Assembly (NCBI RefSeq): GCF_000374165.1
Contig: NZ_KB893747.1
Coordinates: forward strand, 1 to 43,228
Source: Parafrankia elaeagni
GTDB taxonomy: Bacteria > Actinomycetota > Actinomycetes > Frankiales > Frankiaceae
Reading direction: 5' to 3'
DNA length: 43,228 nt
In this document: piece after piece, positions 5,188 to 34,590 of the stretch
How positions within the stretch are numbered: the stretch's first letter is position 1
Layout of the letters: each line of letters starts with the position of its first letter
Notes under the pieces: generated by a model
What the model saw: the letters and a program-made list of their open reading frames with translations, nothing else
Told to the model about the DNA's origin: nothing
Databases searched by the model: none
Program-made: the position numbers and the translations under genes

Positions 5188-5853
5188 TCAGGGACGGGCC
5201 GAGAAACTTTCGTTAAGAACAAGGATAAGAGTCCCGTTTGGGGAGAACTTCGACCCGTCGTTCAGGCGCGGCTGGATTTCCTCGCTGTCGAAGGGAGCAA
5301 GGACTCTGGCCAGTTCCATCGCGGCCGCCTCGTGCCCGTCCTCGTACAGGATCCTCGTGTGCGAGACATTGATGGAACCCTCCCGCTCTCCCGGCACGGT
5401 ACGGGCCTCCCCCGCGCTGGCGACCACGTAGTTCAGGTTCCGCAGAACGGCTCTCGCGGGCTCCACCAGGCCGCCGTCCTGAGAATTGTCGATGACAGTG
5501 ACCTCCGGGCGTCCTGGCGGAGGCTGCCCACCCCCGGCCTCCGTCGGCACGGTCCGTGGGGGGGCTGTCGTGGCTGTGGCGGTGGAGGTCTGCGATTCGG
5601 TTGCATTCGGTGATTCGGTTGCATTCGGCGATTCGGTTGCACTCGGCGATTCGGTTGCACTCGGCGGTGCGGTGACGGTCGGGGTGGTGTCCGGCGACGT
5701 TGACGACAGGACACCGTTCTGGGCACGGTCGGTCACCAGCGAGACGATCAGAGCCCCGGCCAGCAGGGCGACGACCAGGACCATCGTCGCCGCGACGGCG
5801 CGGGTGGATCGGGTCCGGGGGTCCTGCGGCGGCTCCTCCGAGAAGCTGTTCAC
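5188..5853 (-). CDS. LytR C-terminal-domain membrane protein, last gene of the nine-gene operon
   Basis: About 221 residues. A short cytoplasmic N-terminus is followed by one membrane helix (about 20-41), then a Ser/Thr/Pro-rich linker containing four near-identical six-residue repeats (SATESP or NATESP, about 66-87), and an extracytoplasmic LytR_C domain from about 117 to the end. That domain begins with the typical 'VTVIDNSQDGGL' strand-turn and contains 'LNYVVASAG'. LytR_C domains occur in cell-wall-associated actinobacterial proteins, but their ligand is not well defined. The GTG at 5853 is chosen because AAGGAGG lies ten bases upstream; the longer open frame to 6138 is out of phase with the upstream gene and lacks coding character. 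Its place at the end of an operon containing a SEDS-like protein suggests a link to the envelope. Confidence 0.75.
   Translation of the reverse strand: MNSFSEEPPQDPRTRSTRAVAATMVLVVALLAGALIVSLVTDRAQNGVLSSTSPDTTPTVTAPPSATESPSATESPNATESPNATESQTSTATATTAPPRTVPTEAGGGQPPPGRPEVTVIDNSQDGGLVEPARAVLRNLNYVVASAGEARTVPGEREGSINVSHTRILYEDGHEAAAMELARVLAPFDSEEIQPRLNDGSKFSPNGTLILVLNESFSARP
5594..5665. repeat. 18-bp tandem repeat, four units, in the LytR_C linker
   Basis: Four consecutive 18-base units (GATTCGGTTGCATTCGGT and close variants) encode the Ser/Asn-Ala-Thr-Glu-Ser-Pro hexapeptide on the minus strand. The unit length is a multiple of three, so copy-number change would alter linker length without a frameshift. 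Confidence 0.85.
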
Positions 5854-5896
5854 GGCTGGCTGGCCTCCTTGTCGGCCTTGTTGGTCCGCGGAACGA

Positions 5897-7216
5897 CTAG
5901 TCGTCCGGCCAGCGCTGTCGCAGCGCGGCGTCGAGGTCGTCGACAGAGACGGGGGTGTCGAGTCGTTCGAGCAGCGCCGCGATGGCGTCGGCGACAAGGA
6001 TCGTGAGACCGGCCGACGTCGGGGCGGTCCGGATCCGCCAGGTGAGCTCGTCGATGGTCTCCTGGGCGGCGGCTGACCGCTCCCGGCGGGTCTCGTCGGT
6101 TCCGTCGGGTCGGATGGTCCGGCCGGAGCCGTCGTCACCCGTCATCGTGCGCATGACCGTCGTACGCAGCCTGGTCACCGCGGACTGAACCCGCGTGTCC
6201 CCCGGCCCCTGGCCGCACACCTGCCTCGACAGTGCGGACAGCGCGTCGACGACGATGTCGGCGGCCCAGGCCAGCTCCTGGGCGGTGGCCGCCGCGAAGT
6301 CCTGGTGGAGCTCCGCGAGATCGCGGCCCAGGTCCGCGATGACCTGGTCGGCCGCCGCGAGGACGCGCTCCGCGACCTCCGGGTCGAGCTGCGGCCCGAT
6401 CGCCGCGGGGGTGGCGGGAAGGTTCGCGGCGGCCCGGGCCTCCGGCGGGAACAGCGCGCTCCGCAGGCCTTCCAACCTGGCCTCGGTGAGCCACGCGCCG
6501 TCCCGGATGCTGTCCAGCAGTACCCACAGCACGGCGACGGGAGGGTCGACCGCCGTCGCGGCCACTGCGAGAATCCGGCCCTGGGCCGCGTGGGCGCAGC
6601 TGGCCAGGTGCAGCTCGAACTGCTGGATGCTCGTCGCGGCGTCCAGCATCGGTGCGGGCGGGACGCGACTCACCAGACCCGCAAGGGCTGCGCGCAGCTC
6701 GGCCCGGTCGGTACGCACGCCGGCCGGGGCGGTGAGCGCCGCGACGAGCTCGTCGAGCATCGGGTCCGGCTGGACGCGGGCGGTGGGCAGGGTCCGCAGC
6801 AGCGCGGGCACGCAGTCGGGCCGGCGGCGCACCGGCCGAGCCGGCTCCGTGGGGGTTGCGCGCCGCAGGACCGGCCGGCCGTGCAGGCCGGGAAGGATCG
6901 CGGTCAGGGCGACGTGCAGGGCGCGGCTCTCCTCGGCGGACAGCCACTGGCGACGTTTCATCGCGGAGACGAGCGCGTCCAGCGTGTGGATCTGCGCGGT
7001 CAGGCAGGCCCGGTCGTCGAAGGCGCACACCGCGCGGCGCAGCACCTGCTCCGCCGCCCCCCACGGACCGGGATCGCCGTCGTGCACCGGCGCACCGCCG
7101 CCCTGGTCCTCCGGGTGGTGTTCGTGCCCCACCGACGACCCTCCCGGCCCAGGCTCGACGACCGGTGGCGGGGAAGGCACCGGAGTGGGTGCTGTCCTAC
7201 TCACTCTCACTCTCAC
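5897..7216 (-). CDS. Helical protein of unknown function sharing a module with the GAP1-like protein
   Basis: 439 residues, almost all predicted helix, with no membrane segment and no recognised catalytic motif. The N-terminal 50 residues are Pro/Gly-rich. The segment from about 55 (AEQVLRRAVCAF...HTLDALV...RRQWLSAEE) matches, position for position, a segment in the GAP1-like protein encoded at 8756-11395 (AEELLRRAIHNF...HTVDAFI...HRWLNSNE). A second stretch ('DGAWLTEARLEGLRSAL') resembles 'TAAWLPPEAVTEVLRASV' of the same partner. I infer that the two proteins carry homologous helical domains and may share a binding partner. The GTG at 7216 overlaps the end of the SEDS-like gene by 20 bases; a slightly later start is possible. 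I do not recognise a named family. Confidence 0.7.
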   Translation of the reverse strand: MRVRVSRTAPTPVPSPPPVVEPGPGGSSVGHEHHPEDQGGGAPVHDGDPGPWGAAEQVLRRAVCAFDDRACLTAQIHTLDALVSAMKRRQWLSAEESRALHVALTAILPGLHGRPVLRRATPTEPARPVRRRPDCVPALLRTLPTARVQPDPMLDELVAALTAPAGVRTDRAELRAALAGLVSRVPPAPMLDAATSIQQFELHLASCAHAAQGRILAVAATAVDPPVAVLWVLLDSIRDGAWLTEARLEGLRSALFPPEARAAANLPATPAAIGPQLDPEVAERVLAAADQVIADLGRDLAELHQDFAAATAQELAWAADIVVDALSALSRQVCGQGPGDTRVQSAVTRLRTTVMRTMTGDDGSGRTIRPDGTDETRRERSAAAQETIDELTWRIRTAPTSAGLTILVADAIAALLERLDTPVSVDDLDAALRQRWPDD

Positions 7217-8759
7217 TCCCGGCCTCGGTCAGGACGGTGGCGTGATCGCCGCGTGTGTTCTCCGTGGGGGCACCGGCCAGCGGCGCCAGTGTCACGACTG
7301 CCGTCGCCACCGCGACCGCTCCGGCGGTGAGGGCGGCGGTGACTCCCGGCGTCGCGAGAGCACCGGTGCCTGCCGGCCGCCGGGCGTCCTGGTCGCCGCC
7401 GGCCCGGGCCGCGGCGCCGAGGACCAGCCCGACCGAGGCCAGGGCGAGGACCAGCGACGTCCCGCCGCCGGACAGCAGCGGCACGGCGGTCCCCAGCCGC
7501 GGAGCATCCGTGAGCAGCACCAGGCCCGGCAGGGCCAGCCCGGCCGCGAGCATCGCGACCAGCCCTGCCGACACCGCTCTCACCGGCGACGACGGCGCAC
7601 GCGCGACGAGCCACACCAACAGGCCGACCAGGGCGGCCACACCCAGCCCGGCGAACACGGCGAACAGCACGCCGTACTGTTCGACCAGGCCGATCAACGG
7701 GAGATCCCGGCCGGACCAGGACCCGTGGGCCGGCGGCAGGCCGGCCCGGTCCGGCCCGGTCCAGCCGGCGTCGATCAGGCGGAGCCGGTCCCAGATGTCG
7801 TCGTGCCAGCCACGGTCGGTCAGATCGGGCAGGCCCGCGGCCCGGCGTTCCCCGTCGACAGCACCGGTGGCGAGCATGCACCAGGCCAGGCCGCCCCCAC
7901 CGGCCACCACCGCGGCGGCGGCGGCTGCCGCCCACAGCCGGCGGACGGCCAGGAGGGTGAGCACGCCGATCGCCAGCAGCGCGGCGGAGGCGACGTCAGC
8001 GGTGGTGAGCAGCAGGCCGAGTGGCGCGGCCACCGCCCAGACGGCCCAGGCGGCCCCGGCGGCCCCGGCGGCCCGGGCACGGACGGTCCGAGCCGGAAGC
8101 AGTGCGGCCACCAGCGCGAACAACAGATAGCGCAGCAGCTCGGCCGGCGAGGCTCCGAGCGGTCGGGACGAGAGCGACTCCGTCCACGGGGCCGTGAGAC
8201 CCAGGACCGCCACGGTGAGCAGCGCGAGCAGAGCGAGCACCGCGGCGAGCGGCCGCTCCGGTGGCCGCCGTGCCCACCCCGCCCTCGCCCGTGGATCGGG
8301 CCGGGGCCGAGACCAGGGCCAGGGCCCGCGCCCGGCGGCCAGCAGCGCCGCGGTGAGCATGGCCGCGGCGCCCACGGCGACGCTCAGGAACGGCCAGAAC
8401 GTGGGCAGGAACCTTTCACGGTTGAGAAAGCCGACGGTGAGCACGACGCCCACCACCACCGCCACCGCGAGCGCGGCGTCGTCGGGGTGAACCCGATGGA
8501 CCGCCAGCACCAGCAGTGCGCCGAGCAGCGCGGCGAGGGCGAGTGCCGCCGCACCACGGCCGAGCCCATGGTCGAAAGCCCGGTCATAGGCCTGGATGTC
8601 CCAGAGAACGAGCAGGGCCGGCAGGGCCGCACCGGCCATCACCCAGGGCAGCGCGAACCACCGTCCGCCGGTGGCCGCCTCGTTCACCGGCCCCGTCTCG
8701 TTCACCGGCTCCGTCTCGTCGCCGTCCGGCGGCCCGGTGAGGGTGAAGGGAGTCGTCAC
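7197..8759 (-). CDS. Diverged SEDS-family (FtsW/RodA-like) membrane protein
   Basis: A polytopic membrane protein of 520 residues with roughly ten hydrophobic helices. Several degenerate SEDS landmarks appear in the right order. 'SPAELLRYLLFALVAALLP' (204-222) stands where FtsW/RodA have QPSE-lys/arg. 'TTADVASAALLAIGVLTLL' (252-270) stands where they have QPDLGT. A large loop ends in GRDLPLIGLVEQYG (350-363), which corresponds to the loop carrying the catalytic Asp and the following 'E-x-x-G'. 'AVPLLSGGGTS' (425-435) matches the C-terminal 'PFxSxGGS' motif. SEDS proteins polymerise cell-wall glycan from lipid II together with a class B PBP, but no PBP gene is nearby. The QPSE and QPD motifs are altered, so activity is uncertain; Asp352 aligns with the catalytic position. 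The GTG start forms a GTGA overlap with the GAP1-like gene. The C-terminus ends in a Glu/Ser tail. Confidence 0.7.
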   Translation of the reverse strand: MTTPFTLTGPPDGDETEPVNETGPVNEAATGGRWFALPWVMAGAALPALLVLWDIQAYDRAFDHGLGRGAAALALAALLGALLVLAVHRVHPDDAALAVAVVVGVVLTVGFLNRERFLPTFWPFLSVAVGAAAMLTAALLAAGRGPWPWSRPRPDPRARAGWARRPPERPLAAVLALLALLTVAVLGLTAPWTESLSSRPLGASPAELLRYLLFALVAALLPARTVRARAAGAAGAAWAVWAVAAPLGLLLTTADVASAALLAIGVLTLLAVRRLWAAAAAAAVVAGGGGLAWCMLATGAVDGERRAAGLPDLTDRGWHDDIWDRLRLIDAGWTGPDRAGLPPAHGSWSGRDLPLIGLVEQYGVLFAVFAGLGVAALVGLLVWLVARAPSSPVRAVSAGLVAMLAAGLALPGLVLLTDAPRLGTAVPLLSGGGTSLVLALASVGLVLGAAARAGGDQDARRPAGTGALATPGVTAALTAGAVAVATAVVTLAPLAGAPTENTRGDHATVLTEAGSESESE

Positions 8760-11395
8760 AGGAGATCCAGAACTGCTGTCAACAGGCAGAGGAGGATGAA
8801 GGCGGCCGCCGCCCAGTGACTGGTCAGGAACCCGGCGACCCGCCCGAAGACGTCGTCACCGGACATGGCCCGGCGGCTGGGAACGCCTTCTCCCTCCCCG
8901 GCTCCATCCCCGGCCTGGGCGTCGATCTGGCGTCGCAGCTCCTCCTCGAGCTGGTCGACGGCGTCCACCAGCTCCGCGCCGAGCATGTCGAGCCGGGCCG
9001 GCAGCCTGCGCAGCCGACGGATGAGCACTGTCACGACCGCCTGGTCCCCCGCCGCCGGGTCGGCGTACCTCCCGTCCGGCGCGGTCTGGTTCACCGGCGT
9101 CGGGTTGAGGTCGCGCAGTTCCCCGGTCAGCCGTCCGAGTTCCTCCCGCACCTTCTGCTGAAGCTGGTCGAGCTCAGGCCCGGCGGCCCCCGGCCCACGG
9201 ACCGGCCGCGTCAGGGGGTGGTCCAGGTCGAGGCCCTCGGCGGCCAGCAGCTCCTCACCCCGGTGGGCGACGCTGGCCCGCAGCACCTCGGTGACGGCTT
9301 CCGGCGGCAGCCAGGCCGCCGTGCCCAGCAGGCTCGCGGTTATCAACAGGCCTTCGACCGGCGGACCGAGGGGAACGGCCTCCGCCGCCGCGACCACGAG
9401 CTGCTGCAGGTGGATGACGAAGACATCGTCGATCCTCAGCAGGGGCTCGCCCGCGGGGACAACGCCATCGGGCCGGGCACGGTCCGCGGTGTGCGCGGAC
9501 ACGCCGGTCTCGACCGCTGGACTGGCCGAGCCCGCTGGACTGGCCGAGCCCGCGAGGCCGGTGGGGCCGGTGGGGCCGGTGGGCCACGCGGGAGCAGCAG
9601 GCACGATGGAGTCGGTGGGGCCTGTACCGGTCACCGGGCCGCGCGCGGCGGCCGCCGGCTGGTCGCGGGCGGCCGGGGTCAGCGGACGGAACGCCACCAG
9701 CAGTTCGAGCGCTGTCCTGAGGTGACGACCGACGTCGCCGTGTCTGTTCTCCGCGCTCAGCTGCAGCACTTTGAGCAGGCACTCCACCAGCTCGTTCGCG
9801 GCGAGGTCCTGGCGCAGGGGGATGGCGGCCAGGGCATCGACGGCCGGAAGCCGGGTGCTGCGGGAACCGGCTGTTCCCGTCTCCCAGGCCGCGGAGGGCC
9901 GTTGTTCCCAGTGCAGGTGACGCAGCAGGAAGCCCTTGACGAGGTTGCGCTCGTTGGAGTTCAGCCACCGGTGGGTGCGCGCGAGCTGGATGAACGCGTC
10001 GACCGTGTGCGTCGAGGGCGTGAAGGGGCCGGCGTCCGGGAAGTTGTGGATCGCCCGGCGCAGCAGCTCCTCGGCTTCGTGCGGGGTCCGTGGTGGTGGG
10101 CCCGGGTCGGAGGCCGGCTGCCGGCGGGTGGTGTCAGCGGGCGCGGCCCACCCGGTCGAGGTCTGCGTTCCGTGCCGTTCGTACCAGGGGCCCGCCTCCT
10201 CGTACCCGCCGGCGGAGCCCGTCTGCGTCCGTTTCGGCGACGGCACGACCGGCGGCGGCACGACCGGCGGCGGGTCGGCCCGCGGCAGGCCGGTCAGCCG
10301 GTAGTCGAGCTCCTCCGGGGCGGGCGGGAGATGCGGTACCGGTTCCCCCGGGGCGGGTGACGCCGGGACTCCGGGTGACGCCGGGACTCCGTGTGACGCG
10401 GCCCAGGCATCCACCTGCGCGGCCCAGTCCGCCACCCGCCGCAGCCAGCGGTCCTCCAGCACCGGGAAGGCCCGCCACTGCCCCTCGCCGAGCCCGGCGC
10501 CGCCGGCCAGGACGACGGCCCGGGCGATCCGGGCGAACGGATCCGGACCGGCGGCGCGATGCGCCACGTAGGGCTGCTGTCCCTCCCCGCACAGGGCAGG
10601 GGCGAGGTAGGCGTACGCCACGGGACGGTCGAAGCCCCGCTCCGGCTCGACCCGATCCGGCATGAAGATCACTTTTGGGTCGTGCGGATGCGCCGCGACC
10701 CGCGGGTACGTGGCCTCGAAGGTCGAGAACGTCGGCCAGCGGGGATCGTCGCCGATGTACTCCAGCAGGCCGGTGAGGGCCACGACCAGGGCCGCCGCGG
10801 TGGGCTCGTCCGCACCGACCAGCACGACCTGTCTCCCCTGGCCGACCGCCTCATCGACCCGCTGCCGCAGCACCGCCGCGAGCGTCACCGCCAGCGGATC
10901 CTGCAGCAGGACCTCCCCCAGGTCGGACGACGGGGACGTCACCCGCAACTCGCCGCGCCAGGCGACGTCCGACTGCTGGCCGGGACCACGGATGCCGTAC
11001 TCCTCGGGCGTGCGCGCAGGCAGGCGGGCCACCGCCTCCGCGCCGTGGGCCGGCGGCCAGGGCCGGCCGTCGGGCCAGCGCACCAGGCGCGCCGCGCGTC
11101 TGGCGGTGAGGTCGACGGAGTGGCCGGTCAGCACGCTCACCCGCATGCCGCGCCGGGAGTCCTCGCCGGTCTGCTCACGCAGGACGACCGCCGCGTTCTC
11201 GCCAGCGCGCAGGTAGGCCCGCGACGTCCGCGGCTGGGAGACGCGGTTGGTGCGGTTCACGTTCTCCCAGCCGGCGAGCCAGCGCAGCCACCGCTCCCGC
11301 TCGTCCGGGTTCGTGATCGAGCTGGCCACGAGGACGAACCCGCCGCGTTCGTCGACGAACTCGAACTCGTTCTGGTCGAGACGCCCCGGCGTCAT
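8756..11395 (-). CDS. GAP1-like (GTPase-associated protein 1) multidomain protein with C-terminal membrane anchor
   Basis: About 879 residues. The N-terminal domain (about 1-240, starting 'MTPGRLDQNEFEFVDERGGF') and the middle domain look like the GTPase-associated protein 1 family, which in actinomycetes is encoded next to a Double-GTPase gene, exactly as here. A Pro-rich linker (about 330-440) contains short repeats. A helical module (about 450-590) is shared with the protein at 5897-7216, followed by a Gly/Ala/Pro-rich stretch and further helical regions. The last 25 residues (SHWAAAAFILLCLLTAVLDL) form a membrane anchor. The start ATG at 11395 overlaps the GTPase stop by one base (TGATG), which argues against the longer open frame to 11440. 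Its likely role is an adaptor or effector tethering the GTPase to the membrane; the family name is from memory and the function is inferred from context. Confidence 0.7.
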   Translation of the reverse strand: MTPGRLDQNEFEFVDERGGFVLVASSITNPDERERWLRWLAGWENVNRTNRVSQPRTSRAYLRAGENAAVVLREQTGEDSRRGMRVSVLTGHSVDLTARRAARLVRWPDGRPWPPAHGAEAVARLPARTPEEYGIRGPGQQSDVAWRGELRVTSPSSDLGEVLLQDPLAVTLAAVLRQRVDEAVGQGRQVVLVGADEPTAAALVVALTGLLEYIGDDPRWPTFSTFEATYPRVAAHPHDPKVIFMPDRVEPERGFDRPVAYAYLAPALCGEGQQPYVAHRAAGPDPFARIARAVVLAGGAGLGEGQWRAFPVLEDRWLRRVADWAAQVDAWAASHGVPASPGVPASPAPGEPVPHLPPAPEELDYRLTGLPRADPPPVVPPPVVPSPKRTQTGSAGGYEEAGPWYERHGTQTSTGWAAPADTTRRQPASDPGPPPRTPHEAEELLRRAIHNFPDAGPFTPSTHTVDAFIQLARTHRWLNSNERNLVKGFLLRHLHWEQRPSAAWETGTAGSRSTRLPAVDALAAIPLRQDLAANELVECLLKVLQLSAENRHGDVGRHLRTALELLVAFRPLTPAARDQPAAAARGPVTGTGPTDSIVPAAPAWPTGPTGPTGLAGSASPAGSASPAVETGVSAHTADRARPDGVVPAGEPLLRIDDVFVIHLQQLVVAAAEAVPLGPPVEGLLITASLLGTAAWLPPEAVTEVLRASVAHRGEELLAAEGLDLDHPLTRPVRGPGAAGPELDQLQQKVREELGRLTGELRDLNPTPVNQTAPDGRYADPAAGDQAVVTVLIRRLRRLPARLDMLGAELVDAVDQLEEELRRQIDAQAGDGAGEGEGVPSRRAMSGDDVFGRVAGFLTSHWAAAAFILLCLLTAVLDLL

Positions 11396-12492: not shown

Positions 12493-12499
12493 GTCGTCA

Positions 12500-13615: not shown

Positions 13616-16284
13616 GATCCCTCCTTGAGCACGGTCTCGACGGTGCCGGAGCGCATCCGGACCAGCCGCAGCACCCCGGCGGTCTGCCCCCAGTCGGTCC
13701 ATTCCAGCTCGGCGAGCACCTCGGGAGGCAACGGTCCCGACGGTGTTCCGGCCACCGGTTTCGAGTCCGACCCGCGGCTCACCAGCGACGACCGCGCCGC
13801 CCGCGGCGCGAACCGGACGGCGCTGGCCCCGCTCGTGTCGACGTCCAGCAGCTGCAGGTGCTCGGGCGCGCACAGCTGCATCAGTCCACCGTCGGAGACC
13901 GACGTCCGCAGCAGCACACCGAGCCGCTCGGACTCCTGCCAGGCGGCGTCGACGATCTTCTCACGGTCGGCGTCGTCGGTCCGGAACGGCGGGGGCGCGT
14001 GGACGCCTGTCCGGGAGAGATGCCGGTCGTAGCGGTCGAGACCGAAGCCGGTCTCGCCGCGAACCCGGCTGCTCAGCGCGTCGAGCGCCTCGCGTTCGAT
14101 GTCAGGCCAGCACCGCTCGACAACGCTGGCGATCAGGTCGATGACGTCGGCCTCCACCACGTTGCTGATCGGCGTACCCATGGCCCGCAGCCGCAGCGCG
14201 ACATCGGTGTCGGCCCCGGGGCGCCGCTGGCGCGGCGGCTGGGCCGGGAACCCGCGCAGCCGGTCCGAGTAGGTGCCGAGAACCGCCGTCACGTCCTCGA
14301 AGGCCAGCGACATGGCCCGGACCAGGTCGGCACCGGCGCGCCGTGGCCCGGTGAGCGACCAGTCGTACCGGGCCACATCCTCCATGATCCGGGCCACTGC
14401 CTCGGAGGTCTCCCGGGCCAGCTCCACGTACTGCGCCGGGCCCCAGGCGCGCACCGCCCGCGTCCACACCAGGTGCGGCCACCAGGCCAGCGCGGCCAGC
14501 GCCAGCGCCCCGGCCGCCAGCTGCACAGGCACGCTGAAGAAGTCGTCCAGGGACTCGGTGGTGCCCAGGGCGAGCCCGACGTGCGCGCCCGCGACCGCGG
14601 TCACCACCAGGCCGAGCAGGTCGACCGGGCTCTCGCCGGGCGGGCCGCTCGCCCGCCCGAGCAGCAGCCACCAGCCGAGGATGCAGGCGAGCGCCAGCGC
14701 GGCCATCCCGACAGCCATCGGCAGATAGCCGCCGGGATCGCCGCGGCCGACCGCGAACAGCCCGAACGCCCCGGCGGCGCCGAGCAGTGCGAGCAGCACC
14801 AGAAAGACCACGTCGGACGCCTGATGGTCAACCAGCGGAGTCATGCGCCGGGCCACCACCAACGGATAGCCGCGCACCGCGACCAGCGCCACGGCCGCCG
14901 TTCCGAGCCAGGCGCCGAGGTTCCCCGACACAGAACCCGCGGCGGCCGCGACGAGCCCGGCTCCGATCAGCACCGGCAGGACGGCCAGCATCGCGGTGAG
15001 ATTGACGGCCAGCCTGCGGGGCATGTCCCGCAGGAACTCCAGCCGGTCGGTGGGGCAGGCACCCACGAGCTCCTCGCACCGCGCCGCGCTGCCCCTGGGC
15101 AGGAGAAACTCGTGCATCCAGCGCAGCCAGCCCGTGACCTCCGCGACCGGGCGACGACTGGTCAGCGCGGCGTCGACCATCTTGCGCAGCGCGGCGAGCA
15201 GGTCGGCCCGGCCCATGCCCGCCGGTGGGGCCAACGCGAAGCCCCGCGCCCGCAGTTCCTCCTGCGCGGTGGTGCCGAGCGGATGCAGGCTGTCGTGCTC
15301 CTCCATGAGGCGCAGCAGCTCGTCCCGCAGCCACAGCGTGCGTGCCCCGACCTGCCGGGTGGCGGCGGCGATCAGCCCCGCCTGGCTGAACCGGAGGCCC
15401 TGGCCATGGTGGGCGCCGGTGCGCGGCACCCGCAGGTTCTGCAGCGCCACGCCGGGACTGGTGACGAAGTTCAGCGCCGCGCTGCCGTCGGTGACCAGAT
15501 CGCGACAGGTGGCGACGATCCCTGCCATCTCACCGCCGGAGGCGAGGATCGGGTTGCCCGCATCGGCCACCCGCGGATACCGCAGCAGCAGCCGGAACGG
15601 CTCGGGCACCAGATCGCTGGCCGGTCGGGCCCCGTCGTCGGCCTGGTGCGAGGCGAGGATGCGGTCGATGGCCCGGGCTCTGGCGTCGGCGAGCACATCG
15701 TCGTCGACCTGGCCGATCATGACGCGCAGACCCGGTGAGGCGACGGCGCCGGGCATGGTCCGCACCGCCTCGTAGACACGGTCGAACACCCGCGGCGACA
15801 GCAGCGCGTCGACGAGCGAGTCGAACATCGGGCTGCTTGCCGGTGAGGGCCCGGTCACGATCACGTCGGGCTGGTGGTTGCCGAGACTCCAGCCGATGCC
15901 GCGGGAGTCGCCCACCCAGAGCGTGGCGTGCGAGGCGAGCTCGAACGGACGGCGCACCGCCGTCCGTCTCGGTCTGGCCCCGCTGCCGCCGTACAACAGC
16001 GCTTCGGTGCCGTCGGCCGCGTCGTCCAGTGCCGGGCCGACGGCGAGGCAGATCACCCGTTTCACGCCGGGTGCCTTCACGATCCGCTCGAACCCCCGGG
16101 CGTGCGACTCAAGGTCGCGGCTGTCGTCAATCACCAGCACCCGGGTCAGGTCCGCCTCGCTCAGGCCGTACGAGTCGGCGAAGGCACGCTGGACGTCCGT
16201 GAAGGACCCGAAGGCCAGCAGGTCGTCATAACGCTCCCGCAGGTCGATGTCGATGACCTTGGCCTCGACGGCGAGCGCCTTCAC
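13612..16284 (-). CDS. Large six-TM protein of unknown function in the tubulin/GTPase operon
   Basis: 890 residues that I cannot assign to a named family. The first 420 residues are soluble and begin with a beta-rich alpha/beta region ('RVLVIDDS' near 49-56, 'VKRVICLAVG' near 74-83, 'PDVIVTGPSP' near 139-148). This looks like a Rossmann-like domain, followed by helical sequence. Six hydrophobic helices follow at about 425-450, 455-477, 490-513, 521-542, 554-575 and 582-605. The last 280 residues are soluble again, mostly helical then beta, ending in a small beta-like region (VLRLVRMRSGTVETVL). The GTG start overlaps the tubulin-like stop (GTGA) and the stop overlaps the pseudokinase start (GTGA), so the three products are probably made in fixed ratio. 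Function in the complex, perhaps as the membrane platform, is inference only. Confidence 0.65.
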   Translation of the reverse strand: MKALAVEAKVIDIDLRERYDDLLAFGSFTDVQRAFADSYGLSEADLTRVLVIDDSRDLESHARGFERIVKAPGVKRVICLAVGPALDDAADGTEALLYGGSGARPRRTAVRRPFELASHATLWVGDSRGIGWSLGNHQPDVIVTGPSPASSPMFDSLVDALLSPRVFDRVYEAVRTMPGAVASPGLRVMIGQVDDDVLADARARAIDRILASHQADDGARPASDLVPEPFRLLLRYPRVADAGNPILASGGEMAGIVATCRDLVTDGSAALNFVTSPGVALQNLRVPRTGAHHGQGLRFSQAGLIAAATRQVGARTLWLRDELLRLMEEHDSLHPLGTTAQEELRARGFALAPPAGMGRADLLAALRKMVDAALTSRRPVAEVTGWLRWMHEFLLPRGSAARCEELVGACPTDRLEFLRDMPRRLAVNLTAMLAVLPVLIGAGLVAAAAGSVSGNLGAWLGTAAVALVAVRGYPLVVARRMTPLVDHQASDVVFLVLLALLGAAGAFGLFAVGRGDPGGYLPMAVGMAALALACILGWWLLLGRASGPPGESPVDLLGLVVTAVAGAHVGLALGTTESLDDFFSVPVQLAAGALALAALAWWPHLVWTRAVRAWGPAQYVELARETSEAVARIMEDVARYDWSLTGPRRAGADLVRAMSLAFEDVTAVLGTYSDRLRGFPAQPPRQRRPGADTDVALRLRAMGTPISNVVEADVIDLIASVVERCWPDIEREALDALSSRVRGETGFGLDRYDRHLSRTGVHAPPPFRTDDADREKIVDAAWQESERLGVLLRTSVSDGGLMQLCAPEHLQLLDVDTSGASAVRFAPRAARSSLVSRGSDSKPVAGTPSGPLPPEVLAELEWTDWGQTAGVLRLVRMRSGTVETVLKEGS

Positions 16285-19200
16285 TTGGTGAAGTCCACGG
16301 GACGGTCGTTGACCATCCGGTAGAGCTCGCGCAGGTCGCGGCGGGCCGGGGTCGACACGTTGGCGAACGGCATCTCAAGAGCCGCGGGCACGGTGCGGGC
16401 CCAGAAGTCGTGTTGCTGCTCGGCCCAGCTGCGGCTGCCCGCCGGAAGCCCGCCGAGCATGTCGGCGAGCAGCCGCGCCTGTTCGCCGACGCTGTCGACG
16501 AAGGCCCGGAACACCGGGTCCGGCTCGACCACCTGGGAGTTCAGGCCGTCCGGCTGAGCCTTCATCAGCTCGCGGCAGAAATCGTCGCGAACCACCTCGT
16601 CGTCGGCGAACGACCAGTCCTCGTAGGCGCGCAGCAGGCTGCCCCAGGACGAGGCCGGCTCGAACGGGGACAGCGCGAGCGTCATGTCCACCTCGTCGCG
16701 GGTGTCACGGGCGTGCTGTCGGCTGCTGCCGCCGTAGCCGGTTCCGCCGTAGCCGCCGCCGTACCCGCCGCCGCCGTAGCCGCCGAGCTCGTCCGCGTCC
16801 CCACCGCTGTCGCCGAGCACGACCCGAATCGCGTAGGGCGAGCCGGCCTTGCCGTCGAGCACCTGGACCTGCCCGTTCCACATCGCGCACAGCAGCCGGT
16901 GCAGGATGGCCACCCGGTCGTGCTCGGTGGTGGCCAGCCAGCCGTAGTCGTAGCCCAGGCGCTGGCGCCAGCGCAGGAAGTCCTCCCGCTGCTCGTTGCG
17001 CAGCGCGCCGGCCCAGTGGTGCAGGATCTGGCGCAGCTCCGGCACCTGGGTGACGCTCATCGAGGAGCGCAGCAGCACGACCACGATCGACTCGGCGTTG
17101 ATCGGCCGGAACTCCATCGAGATGCCGGGCTCCGTCGGCAGCCGCAGCGACCGGTTCAGGTACTTCTCGATCTGGGGGTCGCGGGCACCCGCCGGGTAGG
17201 AGACCAGGATCTTCAGCTTGCCGGAACCCTGCGGGGAGAAGGTCGCGGGCACCAGTCCGTGGATCTTCGCCTCGAACTGGCGCAGGTCGTCGTCGCCGAC
17301 GGCGGGCGGGCCGTCCCGGCGCACGACCTCGGCCAGCAGGCTGGCCATCGTCGGCAGCAGCGGTTCGCCGGCTATGCCGCTGGACTCCTGGAAGAGGCGC
17401 TTCACCTCCTCCTTGAGCCGGTCCCGCGCGACGGCCACGGCGGCGTCCCCGCCGCGCTCGATCAGCGCCTGCCACACCCGGCGCCAGCCGTCCGGTCCGA
17501 GCACCCGGTGGACGACCTGCCCTTCGGACGCCGCGCCGCCCAGGCCCTGCGCGGCCACCAGGCGCCCGAGTGCCTGCTGGTAGAAGTTGTCCATGTCGCC
17601 GTGCGGCGGCAGCAGGTTGGTGACACCCGTCCGGGCCCGGTACAGGTCGGCCGCGCGCCGCGCGAACTCGCCCGGCTCGGCCCGGCTGTGCTCCGCGAAG
17701 GCGTCCGCGACCAGCCTGAGCTGGGCACGCAGCCGGGTGATCGGGCGCTCCCAGCGCCGCTGGTGCTCGTCCCAGGCGGAGTTCCAGACGGTCCTGGTCC
17801 GCCAGTTGTACCAGGCGTCCTGCGCGCCGATGATCTGCTGGACAGCCGGGTCACCCCAACGCGCCCTGGACCCGAGACGGTGGTCCCGCACCGAGCCCGG
17901 AGCCGGGACCGGCGGGTTCAGCGTGAGGCCGGCGGGTGGCCTCGGCTCGCTGCGCCGGTTGGCCAGGAAGCCCACCACCCCATCGCGGCTGACCTGCTCG
18001 GCCGCCGTCGGCTGTCCCTCGACGATGCGCCGGGCGTGCAGCAGGTCGACGACGCCGAGCAGGTCGTCCAGCCCGGCGCCCGGGTCGAACGCGGCGGCGA
18101 TCTCCGGCACCTGCCGGGAGACGCTGGCGTGCAGGCTGGTCAGGCTGCCCTGCATCGCCTGCAGTCGGGCCTGCAGGGCGGCCAGGATCGCCCCGGCGCC
18201 CCGCTCCGCCGACGACTCGGTGATGCCCGGCGGCTGGCGGCTCAGAATCGGCCCGATGTTCGCCGCGAAGGCGAACCGCCTGATCAGCGCCGCGTCGTCC
18301 GCCGAGGAGCCGGGGGTGGATGACGACAGGTCGTCCACCCCGCGGGCGAGCAACCGGGCGGCCACGAGGTCGGCGAGGTCCTCCGCCGGGATGGTCATCG
18401 AGGCGACCAGGCTGGTGGAGACACCGCGGCGCCCGATGCCGGAGGAGGCAGGGCTGCCCCGCTCGGCGTCGGAGTTGATGAAACTGTCCGCGAACGACTG
18501 GAAGGTCTCGGTGGCGGTGGAGCCGCCGCTGTTCTCCAGCCCCGTCCCGACCAGGGAAAGGACCAGCGAGACGATCGAACGGTGCAGGTCGTCGCGCTGC
18601 ACCCCGCCGGCCCGGCTGAACAGGAACCCGGTCTTGACGGTCGAGGTCATCAGGTTGATGGACCGGCCCCCGTCGGGGTAGCGCACCCCGAGCGTGCCGC
18701 TGGTGCCGTGCATGGTCAGGTTGGTGCCCGCGGGGCGGCCGTTCTGGTCGTCGACCAGCCGGAACAGGTCGAGCAGGGCCCGGCCGGCGTTCAGCCGGGC
18801 CGGCCGGCCACCGCCAAGCCCCTCGTCGAAGGCTGACGGCATGAGCACCAGCGGGTAGATCTTGGCGCGGACCTTCGCCTGCTGGAACGCGTCACCGATC
18901 AGGTGCAGGTAGTCATAGAAGATGCCGGCGCCGGTGCCGCCCGCCACCGAGAAGGCGACGAAGACGTCGCAGGTCTGCCCGAGTTTGCCGCCCAGCGCGG
19001 CCAGCTCCTGGCCGGAGGTGGCGATCTGGCCGACCGCCTGGGCGACCGGCTCGCGGGCGGGCGCGACCCCGGAGCGGAACGTCTCGAACAGCGCCGCCCG
19101 CCCGATCGTCGGCAGCTGGCCCGCACCGAGGATCAACGGGGCGACCAGCGGCTCGCCTTCGGACGGCGGCAGCCAGGGGCGAACATGCTCTCGCGCGTTC

Positions 19201-19535
19201 ACCCGCAGACTGCGTGCCAGATCGGGGTAGTTGTCGATGGTCGGGATCAGCCCGTGCGTGACGTGCTGGGTGGCCGCCGCCGCGTTCACGTGGTCCTCCG
19301 AGGGCACCACGCGGGTGCGCAGCCGGGTCAGCTCGTTCTCGCTGAGATCCGCATAGACGAACTGCAGGCAGGATGGAAGCTGGTACGGCAGGTAGTTCTT
19401 GCCGGGGACGCGCAGGTTCAACGCCCGGCCGTCCGGGCCGCACAGCTCACCGCGCAGCCGGCGCTCGAGTTCGGCGCCGATCAGGCAGCCCGTCCCGCCG
19501 AGTCCGACAAACAGCATGGGCTGGTAGATGTTCAT
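16281..19535 (-). CDS. Tubulin-like GTPase (Tubulin_2 type)
   Basis: 1084 residues, far longer than FtsZ (about 400). The N-terminal nucleotide-binding start 'FVGLGGTGCLIG' (9-20) and the tubulin signature loop 'SVAGGTGAGIFYDY' (196-209, matching GGGTGS/T-G of tubulin/FtsZ) are both present. The fold matches the actinobacterial 'tubulin-like' family that sits beside vWA proteins. The long C-terminal part is helical and contains a Gly/Tyr repeat (GGYGGGGYGGGYGGTGYGG, coded about 16733-16791), unusual for a polymerising GTPase and possibly a flexible tether. The start ATG at 19535 follows the vWA stop by 18 bases. By family it should bind GTP and may assemble filaments; that has to be inferred here. 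It is not the cell-division FtsZ: no FtsZ-type C-terminal peptide and no division genes are nearby. Confidence 0.82.
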   Translation of the reverse strand: MNIYQPMLFVGLGGTGCLIGAELERRLRGELCGPDGRALNLRVPGKNYLPYQLPSCLQFVYADLSENELTRLRTRVVPSEDHVNAAAATQHVTHGLIPTIDNYPDLARSLRVNAREHVRPWLPPSEGEPLVAPLILGAGQLPTIGRAALFETFRSGVAPAREPVAQAVGQIATSGQELAALGGKLGQTCDVFVAFSVAGGTGAGIFYDYLHLIGDAFQQAKVRAKIYPLVLMPSAFDEGLGGGRPARLNAGRALLDLFRLVDDQNGRPAGTNLTMHGTSGTLGVRYPDGGRSINLMTSTVKTGFLFSRAGGVQRDDLHRSIVSLVLSLVGTGLENSGGSTATETFQSFADSFINSDAERGSPASSGIGRRGVSTSLVASMTIPAEDLADLVAARLLARGVDDLSSSTPGSSADDAALIRRFAFAANIGPILSRQPPGITESSAERGAGAILAALQARLQAMQGSLTSLHASVSRQVPEIAAAFDPGAGLDDLLGVVDLLHARRIVEGQPTAAEQVSRDGVVGFLANRRSEPRPPAGLTLNPPVPAPGSVRDHRLGSRARWGDPAVQQIIGAQDAWYNWRTRTVWNSAWDEHQRRWERPITRLRAQLRLVADAFAEHSRAEPGEFARRAADLYRARTGVTNLLPPHGDMDNFYQQALGRLVAAQGLGGAASEGQVVHRVLGPDGWRRVWQALIERGGDAAVAVARDRLKEEVKRLFQESSGIAGEPLLPTMASLLAEVVRRDGPPAVGDDDLRQFEAKIHGLVPATFSPQGSGKLKILVSYPAGARDPQIEKYLNRSLRLPTEPGISMEFRPINAESIVVVLLRSSMSVTQVPELRQILHHWAGALRNEQREDFLRWRQRLGYDYGWLATTEHDRVAILHRLLCAMWNGQVQVLDGKAGSPYAIRVVLGDSGGDADELGGYGGGGYGGGYGGTGYGGSSRQHARDTRDEVDMTLALSPFEPASSWGSLLRAYEDWSFADDEVVRDDFCRELMKAQPDGLNSQVVEPDPVFRAFVDSVGEQARLLADMLGGLPAGSRSWAEQQHDFWARTVPAALEMPFANVSTPARRDLRELYRMVNDRPVDFTK

Positions 19536-19553
19536 GGCTCGTCACCGGGTCCG

Positions 19554-22283
19554 TCAGTCGGAGAGATCGTCAAAGGTGGGCGGGGAGTACGAGGAGTAAC
19601 CAGGCAGCGGGTCCTGCGGGCGGGACCGCCGCCCCGGTCGCCACGACCGCCGGGGTGGCTTCGCGGGGAACGGGCCGGGGCTCGCCGTACCCGCGTCGGG
19701 CGATCGGATGATCGTTGTCTGGTCGAACTGGTCGCTCTCCAATGCCACGCCGCCGGCCGCCGCGCCGGTCCGCCCGGAGCCGCCCGGCGCCCCTCGGCCG
19801 GGGCTGTCGGCGCTCCCGCCGCCCGGCGTCGCACCGCTGGGAGTCCCGCCGCCGAGATAGCTGTCGCCGTGGTCCTCTCCCGACGAGCGGTAGTCACCGG
19901 CCCTCTCGTAGGGGTCGTCCGCACCCGGTCCGGGGGGAAACGCTCCCGGCGAGGTCGTGGCCTCGGCCACCACCAGCGTCAGACCGCCCTCGATCGGCAC
20001 CGGCAGCTGGTTGCGCAGTTCCTGTACCTGGTGGCTCGGCGTCCGCAGCAGCAGGACACGGTGCCTGTCGCGGGTCACCACGTAGCCGGTGCCACCGTGC
20101 GCGTAGTCCAGCCTCGGGGTTGTCCCGGTCGCATCGTGCACGACGAACGCGAACCGGCCCCCGGTGTCCCGCCGGGCCCGCAGTTCGCCGACCTGCCCAC
20201 CGTCGCGGAAAATGCGGACCGTGACGTTGCTGACGTCGCCCGCCTCCCGGGCGGCCCGCAGCCGCCAGGCGGCGAACAGCACCAGCGCGAGCACAAGAGC
20301 CCCGAGCAGCACCAGCAGCCACCAGAAGCGGTCCAGCCAGGAGGGTGGCTCCCGGACCTCCGCGCGGAGGACGGCCCAGGCGATCGTCCGGGCCGAATCG
20401 CCGGCATCGACGAGGACCGCCGTGCCACCGGTCGGGCCCTGCGCCGAGTCCTCGGCGAAGGTGACGGTGAAACGGTGTTCCGAACGGCCCCGCCGGGTGC
20501 TGGTGATGGTCGGCGGATCTATCACCGCATTCACACCGTTGACGAGGTACTGCAGCTGCAGGGACAGGGTGTGGGCGCGACCGTCGATGTTGTCGAGCAC
20601 GACCGTGCCGGACAGTGACTCCCCGGGTGCCACCGTGCCGTCGCTGTCGAACTTCATCGACGCGGTCAGGGGAGCGGGCCCGTTCTGGATGACCGTCTGG
20701 GCATCGACGGACGCTCCCACCACACCCGGGCCGACGACCGTGCCGCGGATCGTCAGGTTCCCGGTCGCGTCGGGCGGAATGGCGATGCGGCCGCTGAAGA
20801 CGGCGTCGCCCCCCTGTGCGTCACCGCCCGTTCCGTCGTCGACCAGGCTCACCTGCTCCTCGTCGAAGCCCGCGCCGGAGACCTGTGCGCCGAACCGGAT
20901 ACCGTCCAGCGTGCGTGGGTCCTTGATCTCCCCGTCGCGGGTCTGCAGCCGTACCGTGATCACAGCCTCCTGCCCGGGCCCCGGGACCGGCGGGTCGAGG
21001 AGGACCACTGCCCGCAGCACCCCCTGCCACATCGCGGCGGCGCCGACGGTCTGCTGGGACGAGAGGCCGTCCGGAGCTGTGAACCGGACCTTCCAGGTCC
21101 CCGGCCGCGGGTTCTGCACCCGTAGCGACTCCACCGTGCCGTTGGGGGTGCTCCGGGTGAAGACGGAGCGGTCGAACTCCTCCCTGTCGCTGACGTCGTT
21201 GTTCTCCGGGTCGATGTAGGCCACCCGGACCCGCGGGTCGCCCTTGACGGCCACGATGACCCCGTCGGTGCTGATCTCGGGGATCTCGACCTCCACCTCG
21301 GCCGAGGAGCCGGGCTGCAGCTCGTCTGTCTCGAAGCCGGTCGTCCGAGCGCAGTTGGCATTGCCGATGGCCTCGAACAGCGAGCGCGTCACCTCGCTCA
21401 GGGAGGTCGCCAGCCGGGCTTTGGGCTGGTATTCCTCCAGGTCACTGCAGGTCTGCTGGGCACCGCCGGCGGCGAAGACATCGAGGGCCGACTTGTCCGC
21501 CGAGCCGAATCCGAGCGGCCAGATCTGCACGCCGTTCTCCCTGGCCCTGGCCACCGCGGCGGAAAGCTGGCGGCCCGCCTCGGTGTTGCGCGCTGCCGGC
21601 GCTCCGTACTGCGGGCTGTTCGGCACGTCGAGACGGCCGTCGGTGAGCAGGAAGATGAGGGAGGAACTGTCGTCCCGGGCCGGGCCGAGAATGCTCAGTG
21701 CCTGGCCGATGGCCGCGGCGTGGTCGGTGTCGTTACCCTCCGATGGTTCCCGGCGGTGCAACCCGTCGATGCACGTGACCAGCGACTGCTGTTTCTCCGG
21801 ATCGGCCTTCGTCAGCGGGCAGTACGTCTGGACGGCCTGCTGCCCCGGTTCACCGTTCGAGCTGCCGAAGCCGACCACCGCGATTTCCGAGTCGGGAGTC
21901 AGCGCGCTGAAGGCGAGCAGCTCGACGGCTTCCTTCTCCTGCCGCACCGCCTCGGCGTCGAGACTGCCGGACTCGTCGGCGATGATGACCGCGCGCACGG
22001 CACGTGGCTCGATGTCCTCCGCGGAACCGGCGGTGGCCGGAGCCGCTCCCGCAGCGGGAGTAGCGGTGGCAGCGGTGGCAGCGGTGTCCGTGGCGGAGAC
22101 GCCCGCGCCCGTGGCCGGGGTCGCCGCGCGGGGCGCCGCCGTCGCCGGCACCCCGACCGCCGCCGCGCACAGGAACGCGAGGGCGACGGCCACGACACGC
22201 CACGACAGAAGTCCGGGAAGGCCTTCCCTTTTCGGGTTCTCCGACGATTGAAGCGTCACGTGGGCACGACTCCCCCAAGCCAT
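19554..22283 (-). CDS. vWA-domain receptor-like type I membrane protein
   Basis: 909 residues, first gene of the operon. The order is: signal peptide with hydrophobic core (about 27-50, ending in an Ala-rich cleavage region); an Ala/Thr-rich spacer; a von Willebrand A domain with an intact MIDAS (DESGS at 103-107, T186, D215 in FLLTDG); beta-sandwich, Ig-like extracellular domains (about 330-640); one membrane helix (about 653-675); and a 230-residue cytoplasmic tail. The tail holds a small beta domain and then a Gly/Ser/Pro-rich stretch with 'FDQTTIIRSPD', which resembles phospho-Thr sites read by FHA domains. The start ATG 22283 is preceded by GAGGGA; the open frame reaches back to 22646 but crosses AT-richer non-coding sequence. 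Likely role: metal-dependent binding of an extracellular ligand, signalling inward to the tubulin/GTPase machinery. Confidence 0.8.
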   Translation of the reverse strand: MAWGSRAHVTLQSSENPKREGLPGLLSWRVVAVALAFLCAAAVGVPATAAPRAATPATGAGVSATDTAATAATATPAAGAAPATAGSAEDIEPRAVRAVIIADESGSLDAEAVRQEKEAVELLAFSALTPDSEIAVVGFGSSNGEPGQQAVQTYCPLTKADPEKQQSLVTCIDGLHRREPSEGNDTDHAAAIGQALSILGPARDDSSSLIFLLTDGRLDVPNSPQYGAPAARNTEAGRQLSAAVARARENGVQIWPLGFGSADKSALDVFAAGGAQQTCSDLEEYQPKARLATSLSEVTRSLFEAIGNANCARTTGFETDELQPGSSAEVEVEIPEISTDGVIVAVKGDPRVRVAYIDPENNDVSDREEFDRSVFTRSTPNGTVESLRVQNPRPGTWKVRFTAPDGLSSQQTVGAAAMWQGVLRAVVLLDPPVPGPGQEAVITVRLQTRDGEIKDPRTLDGIRFGAQVSGAGFDEEQVSLVDDGTGGDAQGGDAVFSGRIAIPPDATGNLTIRGTVVGPGVVGASVDAQTVIQNGPAPLTASMKFDSDGTVAPGESLSGTVVLDNIDGRAHTLSLQLQYLVNGVNAVIDPPTITSTRRGRSEHRFTVTFAEDSAQGPTGGTAVLVDAGDSARTIAWAVLRAEVREPPSWLDRFWWLLVLLGALVLALVLFAAWRLRAAREAGDVSNVTVRIFRDGGQVGELRARRDTGGRFAFVVHDATGTTPRLDYAHGGTGYVVTRDRHRVLLLRTPSHQVQELRNQLPVPIEGGLTLVVAEATTSPGAFPPGPGADDPYERAGDYRSSGEDHGDSYLGGGTPSGATPGGGSADSPGRGAPGGSGRTGAAAGGVALESDQFDQTTIIRSPDAGTASPGPFPAKPPRRSWRPGRRSRPQDPLPGYSSYSPPTFDDLSD

Positions 22284-31435: not shown

Positions 31436-31548
31436 GTCAACCAGTATCTCTGCGAGATCTGACATGCTGACTACCGGTGTCTCGCCACGCACAGTTCCCG
31501 ACCACCGCGCGACGTCGGCTGGCTGGGGCCCAATGGCTGGTCCCGCCC

Positions 31549-32247: not shown

Positions 32248-32642
32248 CGTGACCGCCTTCATCCCTTTTTGTCCGTCAGGGATATGTCCGCCGAGCCGCC
32301 CCGGGCCGGCCCGCGTCCGCGACGGACAGGCCCGGCCCTGGCGGTCGAGATTACCCGCACGAGGTGCACTTTCCACAGAAACCGTCTCACCCACGCGACT
32401 CCGACCGAACGGCTGCTCCACAGCCACGACTCCGCTGCGCCACGAGGCCGACTTGGCTGGTCAGCGGCCCCGGGGACACCCCGGCCAGGTACCGTCTATA
32501 TCCTTCACACGATAGTCGACCGGGCGCGGCTGATCGCCGGGGGAAGCCGTCAGCCACACCGCGGAACGAGCGTCAGACACAACGCGGTGTGTCGACTCCT
32601 GAGTTCTCCCGGGACGGACCGTCGACGACGTTGGAGACTTGC
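32248..32642. other. Divergent intergenic region between two roadblock genes
   Basis: This 395-base region separates the two divergently transcribed roadblock genes and must contain promoters for both directions. Open frames that cross it are extensions without coding character. A TATATCC-containing stretch near 32498-32506 may belong to the rightward promoter, but I cannot pair it with a clear -35 box. The GGAG of the rightward gene lies at 32632-32635. Nothing else stands out. Confidence 0.4.
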
Positions 32643-33005: not shown

Positions 33006-33115
33006 GCGCCGTGCGTCGGCCCGGGCGGCAGATCCCGGCCGACAGCTACGACAGCTACGGAGGGTGAATCGGCAGGGCCGCACGTGCTGGATCACCGGGA
33101 GGCAGGAGATGACGG

Positions 33116-33916: not shown

Positions 33917-33949
33917 CGCCTGCCGTTCGACTCATCCGCAGGGACACTC

Positions 33950-34546: not shown

Positions 34547-34590
34547 GTGCGCCCGTCCGGGCCTTCCGGCCCGCCCGCTAGCCTCAGTGG

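What the first reader, a model, noticed from the sequence alone, without database searches (positions are those of the whole stretch)
5188..22283. Nine-gene operon joining an extracellular vWA receptor, a tubulin-like GTPase, a pseudokinase, a Double-GTPase/GAP1 pair and a SEDS-like protein
Nine minus-strand genes run with overlaps or very short gaps (GTGA at 16281-16284, 13612-13615 and 8756-8759; TGATG at 11393-11397), so they are very probably one transcript. The predicted layout spans the envelope. The vWA protein senses outside and has a cytoplasmic tail. Two polytopic proteins and a GAP1-like protein with a membrane anchor form a platform. Cytoplasmic parts are a tubulin-like GTPase, a pseudokinase and a TRAFAC GTPase. 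A SEDS-like and a LytR_C protein point to cell-wall glycan. From memory, tubulin-like, vWA, Double-GTPase and GAP1 families have been noted together in actinomycetes as probable conflict or signalling systems, but the full set with the SEDS-like and LytR_C members is, as far as I know, without assigned function. Hypothesis: ligand sensing triggers tubulin/GTPase assembly at the membrane, which changes or seals the cell wall.
Basis: partly seen in the sequence, partly recalled or inferred. Interest (0 to 1): 0.85.

Follow-up and report, generated by a model that had tools for sequence, protein, structure and literature searches.

The report
Tubulin-GTPase operon with peptidoglycan-synthase relative
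A nine-gene cluster in a Frankia-like soil bacterium joins a surface sensor, a bacterial tubulin relative and a molecular-switch GTPase to a protein descended from the enzymes that build the cell wall, which suggests that this poorly understood (perhaps antiviral) machine acts on the cell wall.

Summary
In detail: nine minus-strand genes at 5188-22283 with the overlaps described. Six (vWA, tubulin, polytopic, pseudokinase, DO-GTPase, GAP1-like) form a conserved cassette, complete and in order in 37 of 47 loci with a tubulin of this type, window included. The core is known: FtsZl1 operons (Makarova & Koonin 2010) and the actinobacterial tubulin theme of DO-GTPase/GAP1-N2 conflict systems (Kaur 2020). 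The pseudokinase lacks the HRD aspartate; GAP1 identity is weak. New here: the SEDS-like gene is a real, recurrent component. It is in 10 of 13 Frankiaceae tubulin systems (in three on another contig than the tubulin). Four Parafrankia genomes without the tubulin have instead kinase-DO-GTPase-GAP1-like-SEDS-bPBP loci that keep most catalytic motifs checked. In tubulin systems the SEDS part is degenerate (aspartate kept in 1 of 9, the window's), and the PBP part has lost its motifs or is absent. The ten low-scoring SEDS matches in 36 Frankiaceae genomes all belong to such loci. The helical and LytR_C genes are Parafrankia additions; the helical one shares a domain with the GAP1-like protein. 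Most likely: a sensor- and GTPase-gated membrane machine whose output acts on wall synthesis. That link is well supported; defence and decoy action are inference.

The parts
19554..22283 (-). Gene A: membrane vWA protein; N-terminal hydrophobic segment, vWA with DxSxS, TM near residue 653, cytoplasmic beta-rich tail (start may be 22193)
   Evidence: Pfam VWA 5e-9; choice_anch_X 7e-7; DxSxS pattern in 39 of 48 A proteins; tail read by eye
16281..19535 (-). Gene B: Tubulin_2 (FtsZl1) GTPase, 1084 aa
   Evidence: PF13809 1e-60; GGTG[AST]G signature in 46 of 51 B proteins
13612..16284 (-). Gene C: 890-aa protein with a central TM cluster (431-600), no known family
   Evidence: only a weak CcdA hit in Pfam (0.057) and none in NCBIfam; weak PDB matches only; conserved next to B
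12500..13615 (-). Gene D: pseudokinase (HRW for HRD, T for the catalytic-loop Asn)
   Evidence: Pkinase 1.5e-6; motif alignments
11395..12492 (-). Gene E: DO-GTPase2 with zinc ribbon, intact Walker A, Walker B and KSD
   Evidence: PF19993 3e-8, over cut-off; invariant C12, C15, C59, H70, G94, K95, D178, K247, D249 in 11 sequences
8756..11395 (-). Gene F: GAP1-like protein with C-terminal TM
   Evidence: GAP1-M E 0.019, under cut-off; 20-member profile against GAP1-N2-type proteins 60% probability, E 9e-5, 195 columns; C-terminal TM in 41 of 48 F proteins
7197..8759 (-). Gene G: SEDS (RodA/FtsW)-derived polytopic protein, 11 predicted TM; the bPBP part seen in relatives is missing here
   Evidence: FTSW_RODA 2.8e-4; profile of 8 G proteins matches RodA and PBP2 structures at about 5e-8; the single sequence finds nothing in PDB at E 1
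5897..7132 (-). Gene H: helical protein sharing a domain of about 127 residues with F (start may be 7216)
   Evidence: hhalign F against H 96.1%, E 3e-9; coding frame by GC3
5188..5853 (-). Gene I: one-TM protein with LytR_C domain
   Evidence: LytR_C 2e-4 on the longer ORF to 6138; start by codon model

Best explanation
This is the Parafrankia form of the actinobacterial tubulin/DO-GTPase/GAP1-like system, with an output module derived from a SEDS-bPBP peptidoglycan synthase. Proposed working: the vWA protein senses something outside and signals through its TM and cytoplasmic tail; the DO-GTPase with the membrane-tethered GAP1-like protein and the pseudokinase scaffold act as a thresholding switch; the tubulin-like GTPase assembles at the membrane; and the SEDS-derived protein couples that assembly to the wall-building machinery. 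In tubulin-less sister loci the same slot holds a SEDS-bPBP that keeps most catalytic motifs, beside a kinase that keeps its catalytic set, so there the output is probably dedicated wall synthesis. In the tubulin loci the decayed SEDS(-PBP) more likely acts as a decoy, docking site or dominant negative that stalls or redirects wall growth in a stressed or infected hyphal compartment. Shown by sequence: gene set, order, homologies, kept or lost motifs. Inferred: signal flow, tubulin assembly at the membrane, effect on wall synthesis, and the conflict role.
For: Cassette A-F in order in 37 of 47 loci with this type of tubulin. SEDS in 10 of 13 Frankiaceae tubulin systems. D-E-F-SEDS/PBP in 4 of 4 tubulin-less Parafrankia loci, with GTPase2 and X genes that also follow G in Frankia tubulin loci. 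The SEDS-bearing E sequences fall in three well-supported clades whose deeper order is unresolved. In 36 Frankiaceae genomes the ten low-scoring SEDS matches all belong to such loci. G profile without canonical sequences matches RodA 5e-8 and PBP2 5.5e-8. SEDS Asp, PBP SxxK/SxN/KTG and kinase D-N-D kept in the 4 tubulin-less loci; in tubulin systems Asp 1 of 9, PBP motifs 0 of 7, kinase D-N-D 0 of 46. FtsW lacking the Asp is dominant negative in E. coli (PMC8765783, passages). F and H share a domain. Against P. colletiae dN/dS is higher in F, G, H (0.51-0.54) than in B and E (0.17).
Against: The window's G keeps the catalytic Asp, PxE..R and SGGGTS, so it may be active. The tubulin-less SEDS has Gly where canonical ones have the ECL2 Trp; FtsW W138A, by spacing the same site, is dead in E. 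coli, so its activity is not assured either. Outside Frankiaceae only Acrocarpospora (PBP 5e-6) and Sinosporangium (PBP 0.0016) have a polytopic protein there, with a membrane part not recognisable as SEDS. The motif-keeping loci are one clade, so the contrast rests on one lineage; 16 of 20 tubulin-less D proteins are dead too. Against P. soli the dN/dS of G (0.58) is like that of A, C, D (0.56-0.60). No structure could be predicted; nothing on expression or phenotype is known.
Confidence: 0.4

Rival explanations
1. The SEDS-like protein is still an active glycan polymerase and the system patches or seals the wall: tubulin assembly recruits G, perhaps with a bPBP encoded elsewhere.
For: Window G keeps the Asp (RDLPL), PAELLR and SGGGTS; tubulin-less relatives keep Asp and PBP motifs; G is constrained (dN/dS 0.53 against P. 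colletiae).
Against: P. colletiae and P. soli have Glu there, six Frankia copies H, R or T (G015 has an Asp one place to either side); no PBP partner in the window operon; G matches 24 of 49 canonical near-invariant positions against 30-32 in the tubulin-less copies.
Confidence: 0.2
2. It is a developmental or morphogenetic machine of filamentous actinomycetes (septation, sporangia, vesicles), not a conflict system.
For: Every Parafrankia genome examined (7 of 7) has an E locus of one of the two kinds; Makarova and Koonin proposed membrane remodelling (PMC2875224).
Against: Patchy elsewhere (Tubulin_2 in 28 of 394 class genomes); variable tails; faster-evolving F-I against P. colletiae.
Confidence: 0.25
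3. G, H and I are chance neighbours of a six-gene core.
For: No SEDS hit in the Streptomyces and Embleya loci or in 30 further loci, some of which end soon after F; H and I are operon members only in three Parafrankia loci.
Against: SEDS recurs in three E clades, and low-scoring SEDS matches in the family occur only there; F and H share a domain; GTGA overlap of F and G.
Confidence: 0.07

Closest known systems
GAP1-N2-type DO-GTPase conflict systems, actinobacterial tubulin theme (Kaur et al. 2020, PMC7159879)
   Same: DO-GTPase with zinc ribbon, GAP1-like protein with C-terminal TM, one tubulin gene, membrane vWA protein with beta-rich domain
   Different: No FNIII or HRDC hit in the window's nine proteins; GAP1 domains at or below detection; pseudokinase, C, SEDS-derived G, helical H and LytR_C added. 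Its main text has no hit for FtsW, RodA, penicillin or transpeptidase; its figures and source data were not seen
FtsZl1 operons (Makarova & Koonin 2010, PMC2875224)
   Same: FtsZ-like 1 tubulin with vWA, GTPase and Ser/Thr kinase genes
   Different: They name OmpA-family proteins as a wall link; the two of five parts read do not mention a SEDS partner
RodA-PBP2 / FtsW-FtsI peptidoglycan synthases
   Same: SEDS homology by profile; SEDS followed by bPBP in relatives
   Different: Placed in a DO-GTPase locus; in tubulin loci degenerate; window copy lacks the PBP part

Membership tests
Tubulin_2 / FtsZl1 | PF13809 over curated cut-off | tested here: met
   206 bits against 27
Tubulin_2 / FtsZl1 | GGTG[ST/A]G GTP-binding signature | tested here: met
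   GGTGAG in the window's protein; 46 of 51 B proteins by pattern
Tubulin_2 / FtsZl1 | Forms filaments | not testable with these tools
   needs biochemistry
DO-GTPase/GAP1-N2 system | DO-GTPase domain with zinc ribbon | tested here: met
   PF19993 34 bits against 27; C-C-C-H invariant
DO-GTPase/GAP1-N2 system | GAP1-N2, -M, -C domains downstream of the GTPase | tested here: inconclusive
   1 of 14 F proteins matches GAP1-M, E 0.019 under cut-off; all-F profile 60%, smaller F profiles 0.2-19.6%; position, size and C-terminal TM fit
DO-GTPase/GAP1-N2 system | Two FNIII-repeat proteins, one with HRDC (actinobacterial tubulin theme) | tested here: not met
   no FNIII or HRDC match in the 9 proteins at E 0.1; a diverged FNIII in A is not excluded
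SEDS (FTSW_RODA_SPOVE) | Pfam match over cut-off | tested here: not met
   20.4 against 26.4 bits; Frankia G017 copy is over, 32 bits
SEDS (FTSW_RODA_SPOVE) | Homology by profile | tested here: met
   8-member G profile against RodA 5e-8; hhalign 90.9% for the three Parafrankia copies together; window alone scores 41 (56.7%), 14 unrelated polytopic controls at most 24.7
SEDS (FTSW_RODA_SPOVE) | Catalytic Asp (FtsW D297) | tested here: met
   window D in RDLPL, but only 1 of 9 tubulin-system copies
Active protein kinase | HRD Asp, Asn, DFG Asp | tested here: not met
   window W, T, D
Known anti-phage systems (PADLOC 2.0.0) | Specific profile match | tested here: not met
   only D matches, to parts of kinase models of MkoA, mad6 and PD-T4-6

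The most novel reading that the evidence does not exclude
A class of DO-GTPase/GAP1-like systems carries its own dedicated peptidoglycan synthase (SEDS-bPBP), gated by a GTPase and a kinase, and in tubulin-bearing versions this synthase has decayed into a tubulin-linked decoy that controls or blocks the host's own wall synthesis as a conflict effector.
Probability: 0.3. Interest if true: 0.85.

Novelty: new variant of a known kind. Interest (0 to 1): 0.66.

Why it matters
Tubulin-bearing DO-GTPase systems were predicted to be conflict systems with no known target. The finding names a candidate target, the SEDS-bPBP wall synthase, and supplies a natural pair for comparison within one genus (motif-keeping and decayed versions). 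No paper linking SEDS proteins to these systems showed in the listings of my searches of the held library, which is open-access only.

Tried and rejected
Structure prediction for G and C was asked 12 times and never accepted because the queue was full, so no fold comparison was done.

A class-wide search with the SEDS-PBP profile failed on the machine and was not repeated; the family-wide Pfam search stood in for it.

'Tubulin-less means active kinase' was considered and rejected: 16 of 20 tubulin-less D proteins lack the catalytic set. The kinase Lys aligned in all four motif-keeping loci but not, so it is not counted. Wadjet adjacency as evidence for defence was kept as weak: type II JetC is in 211 of 297 genomes of one family and 31 of 59 relatives. 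The F query was frame-shifted, as was F in the training of the codon model; the F comparison was redone, the codon model was not retrained. One 'canonical SEDS' row (L109) was a wrong ORF; it is in the counts and was dropped from the hhalign and alignment. Profiles were built partly from the loci then scanned, so one search is circular for those rows; first links were by tblastn from the window. Eight of the 14 class loci had no or only a remote B and, save G135, are not among the 47. Of the 13 named loci eight were used; four repeat G-handle loci and one is 3.4 kb long.

Full report
What is there. The window lies in a Parafrankia-like genome: the tubulin protein is 92% identical to that of Parafrankia colletiae and 73% to P. 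soli. Spacing makes one transcript likely; that is inference.

Families. A is a vWA membrane protein, B Tubulin_2 (1e-60), D a kinase fold without the HRD aspartate, E a DO-GTPase2 with a zinc ribbon and intact P-loop, G matches FTSW_RODA below cut-off, I LytR_C just above. F is called GAP1-like on weak grounds: one of 14 F proteins hits GAP1-M at 0.019; a 20-member F profile aligns colinearly with a profile of nine F-position proteins from other DO-GTPase loci, five of them confirmed GAP1-N2, at 60% probability, E 9e-5, while smaller F profiles give 0.2-19.6%. C has no known family. No specific defence profile matches.

A conserved cassette. Tubulin_2 is in 13 of 59 relatives and 28 of 394 class genomes. 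Neighbourhoods were read for the 13 Frankiaceae genomes and 14 of the 15 others; six of those 14 have the window's kind of operon, G361 and G135 only a remote B, six none that the window's B finds. Further loci came and from the DO-GTPase profile (38 of 394 genomes; 47 of 297 genomes of the family that holds Sinosporangium and Acrocarpospora, from which 30 loci were fetched). Of 46 loci with a B of this type besides the window, 36 have A-B-C-D-E-F in order; the other ten are five cut by contig ends, four with an undetected F, and G135 of another type. The invariant residues of E and the tubulin signature (46 of 51) argue for working GTPases.

The SEDS link. In Frankiaceae a polytopic SEDS relative belongs to 10 of 13 tubulin systems: window, P. 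colletiae, P. soli, G015, G017, G025, G026, G032, G033, G034; not to G007, G027, G029. It follows F in nine; in G026 and G033 that contig does not hold the tubulin, and in G034 the SEDS contig holds neither F nor tubulin. A profile of eight such proteins, without any canonical sequence, matches solved RodA (best 5.2e-8) in its membrane part and PBP2 transpeptidases (5.5e-8) in its C-terminal part; two of the eight, Sinosporangium and Acrocarpospora, have a membrane part not recognisable as SEDS (7.6% as a pair). Single-sequence scores of nine Frankiaceae G proteins are 31-73 (probabilities 12-96%) against at most 24.7 for 14 unrelated polytopic proteins; Sinosporangium has 30, Acrocarpospora 23.

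Tubulin-less sisters. Four Parafrankia genomes without Tubulin_2 (G001, G003, G005, G006) have D-E-F followed by a SEDS-bPBP (one ORF in three, two overlapping ORFs in G001) that matches FTSW_RODA at 1e-37 to 3e-39 and transpeptidase at 3e-33 or better in G001, G003 and G006 (two pieces, best 1.7e-26, in G005). A second GTPase and a gene X stand beside these loci on the other strand; the same two follow G in G015, G017, G032 and G033. All 7 Parafrankia genomes have an E locus: 3 with, 4 without tubulin; G001 has a second, fused E. In the E tree the Parafrankia tubulin loci (with G007 and G027), the Frankia tubulin loci and the tubulin-less loci (with the second E of G001) are each well supported; the forks between them are weak (84/62, 84/77), and there are long-branch warnings.

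Are low-scoring SEDS found elsewhere? FTSW_RODA was sought in 36 Frankiaceae genomes at E 0.01. Ten genes score under 140 bits: G000, G001, G003, G005, G006, G017, G026, G032, G033 in the loci above, and G034 on a contig with the second GTPase. Two lower-scoring pieces, in G008 and G012, complement other pieces of full-length genes and were taken as fragments without reading them. The search missed four known G genes (G002, G004, G015, G025), and extra SEDS genes with full or split high scores exist outside these loci in G009, G013, G015, G024 and G027; so the statement holds for low-scoring copies at this threshold.

Kept and decayed versions. In the tubulin-less loci the SEDS Asp (NDFILAVLGEE), QPTE, the PBP SxxK, SxN and KTG motifs, and the kinase D-N-D set are all there (4 of 4). 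But their SEDS has Gly for the Trp twelve residues before the QPSE Glu, a site whose mutation (W138A) kills E. coli FtsW (PMC8765783, passages; same site by spacing), and Arg for the Lys. In tubulin systems the Asp is kept in 1 of 9 (the window); P. colletiae and P. soli have Glu, the six Frankia copies H, R or T (the G034 copy was not aligned). The PBP part has none of the three motifs in 7 of 7 aligned (Sinosporangium, Acrocarpospora and the contig-cut G025 included, poorly aligned), and it is missing in the window and P. soli. The kinase set is kept in 0 of 46 tubulin-associated D proteins (3 of them on separate contigs) and in 4 of 20 tubulin-less ones, the same four loci. These four are one clade, so this is one contrast, not four.

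Extra genes. H and I are operon members in the three Parafrankia tubulin loci only; LytR_C-like proteins also lie on the other strand near the loci of G026 and G029. H shares about 127 residues with F (96.1%, E 3e-9), which recalls, by analogy, the adaptor logic of effector-associated domains. Between window and P. colletiae dN/dS rises from 0.17 (B, E) to 0.26-0.32 (A, C, D), 0.51-0.54 (F, G, H) and 0.73 (I); against P. soli it is 0.23 (E), 0.39 (B), 0.56-0.60 (A, C, D, G), 0.75-0.76 (F, H).

What is known. Makarova and Koonin (PMC2875224; parts 1 and 2 of 5 read) described FtsZl1 with vWA, GTPase, kinase and OmpA genes and proposed membrane remodelling. Kaur et al. (PMC7159879; abstract and passages) described DO-GTPase/GAP1-N2 systems with an actinobacterial tubulin theme as conflict systems; FtsW, RodA, penicillin and transpeptidase do not occur in its main text. 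That an FtsW without its aspartate blocks division in E. coli comes from PMC8765783 (passages).

Reading. The core is known; the wall-synthase branch is, to my searches, new. I favour a sensor-GTPase-tubulin machine whose output acts on wall synthesis, by real synthesis in the tubulin-less loci and more likely by a decoy or docking role in the tubulin loci; for the window itself residual activity is open because the aspartate is kept.

Noticed in passing
22694-31492 (-): Complete type II Wadjet operon (JetD, JetC, JetB, JetA) directly upstream of gene A; P. colletiae keeps only a JetD remnant there and has no JetC match; one other core locus (G627) also has JetD/JetC nearby.
   Followed up: partly
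35838-40246 (+): Hen1/Pnkp RNA-repair pair beyond the Wadjet operon, also beside the operon in P. colletiae.
   Followed up: partly
31549-35651: Two Roadblock/LC7 proteins, a small GTPase-like protein and a V4R protein in a group.
   Followed up: no
L024:993-2714 (G029): In a relative without SEDS the slot after F holds a kinase (Pkinase 7e-39), so the position may be an exchangeable output slot.
   Followed up: no
L156 (G001:C365): Second DO-GTPase in G001, in a 1017-aa protein, with no F or SEDS profile hit beside it.
   Followed up: no
L078 (G361), L082 (G135): A different, three-gene Tubulin_2 arrangement (a large one-TM protein, tubulin, a large two-TM protein) with no DO-GTPase match in the 20 kb read.
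   Followed up: no
L177-L190: Loci of the Sinosporangium family carry their own recurrent unidentified tails after F.
   Followed up: no
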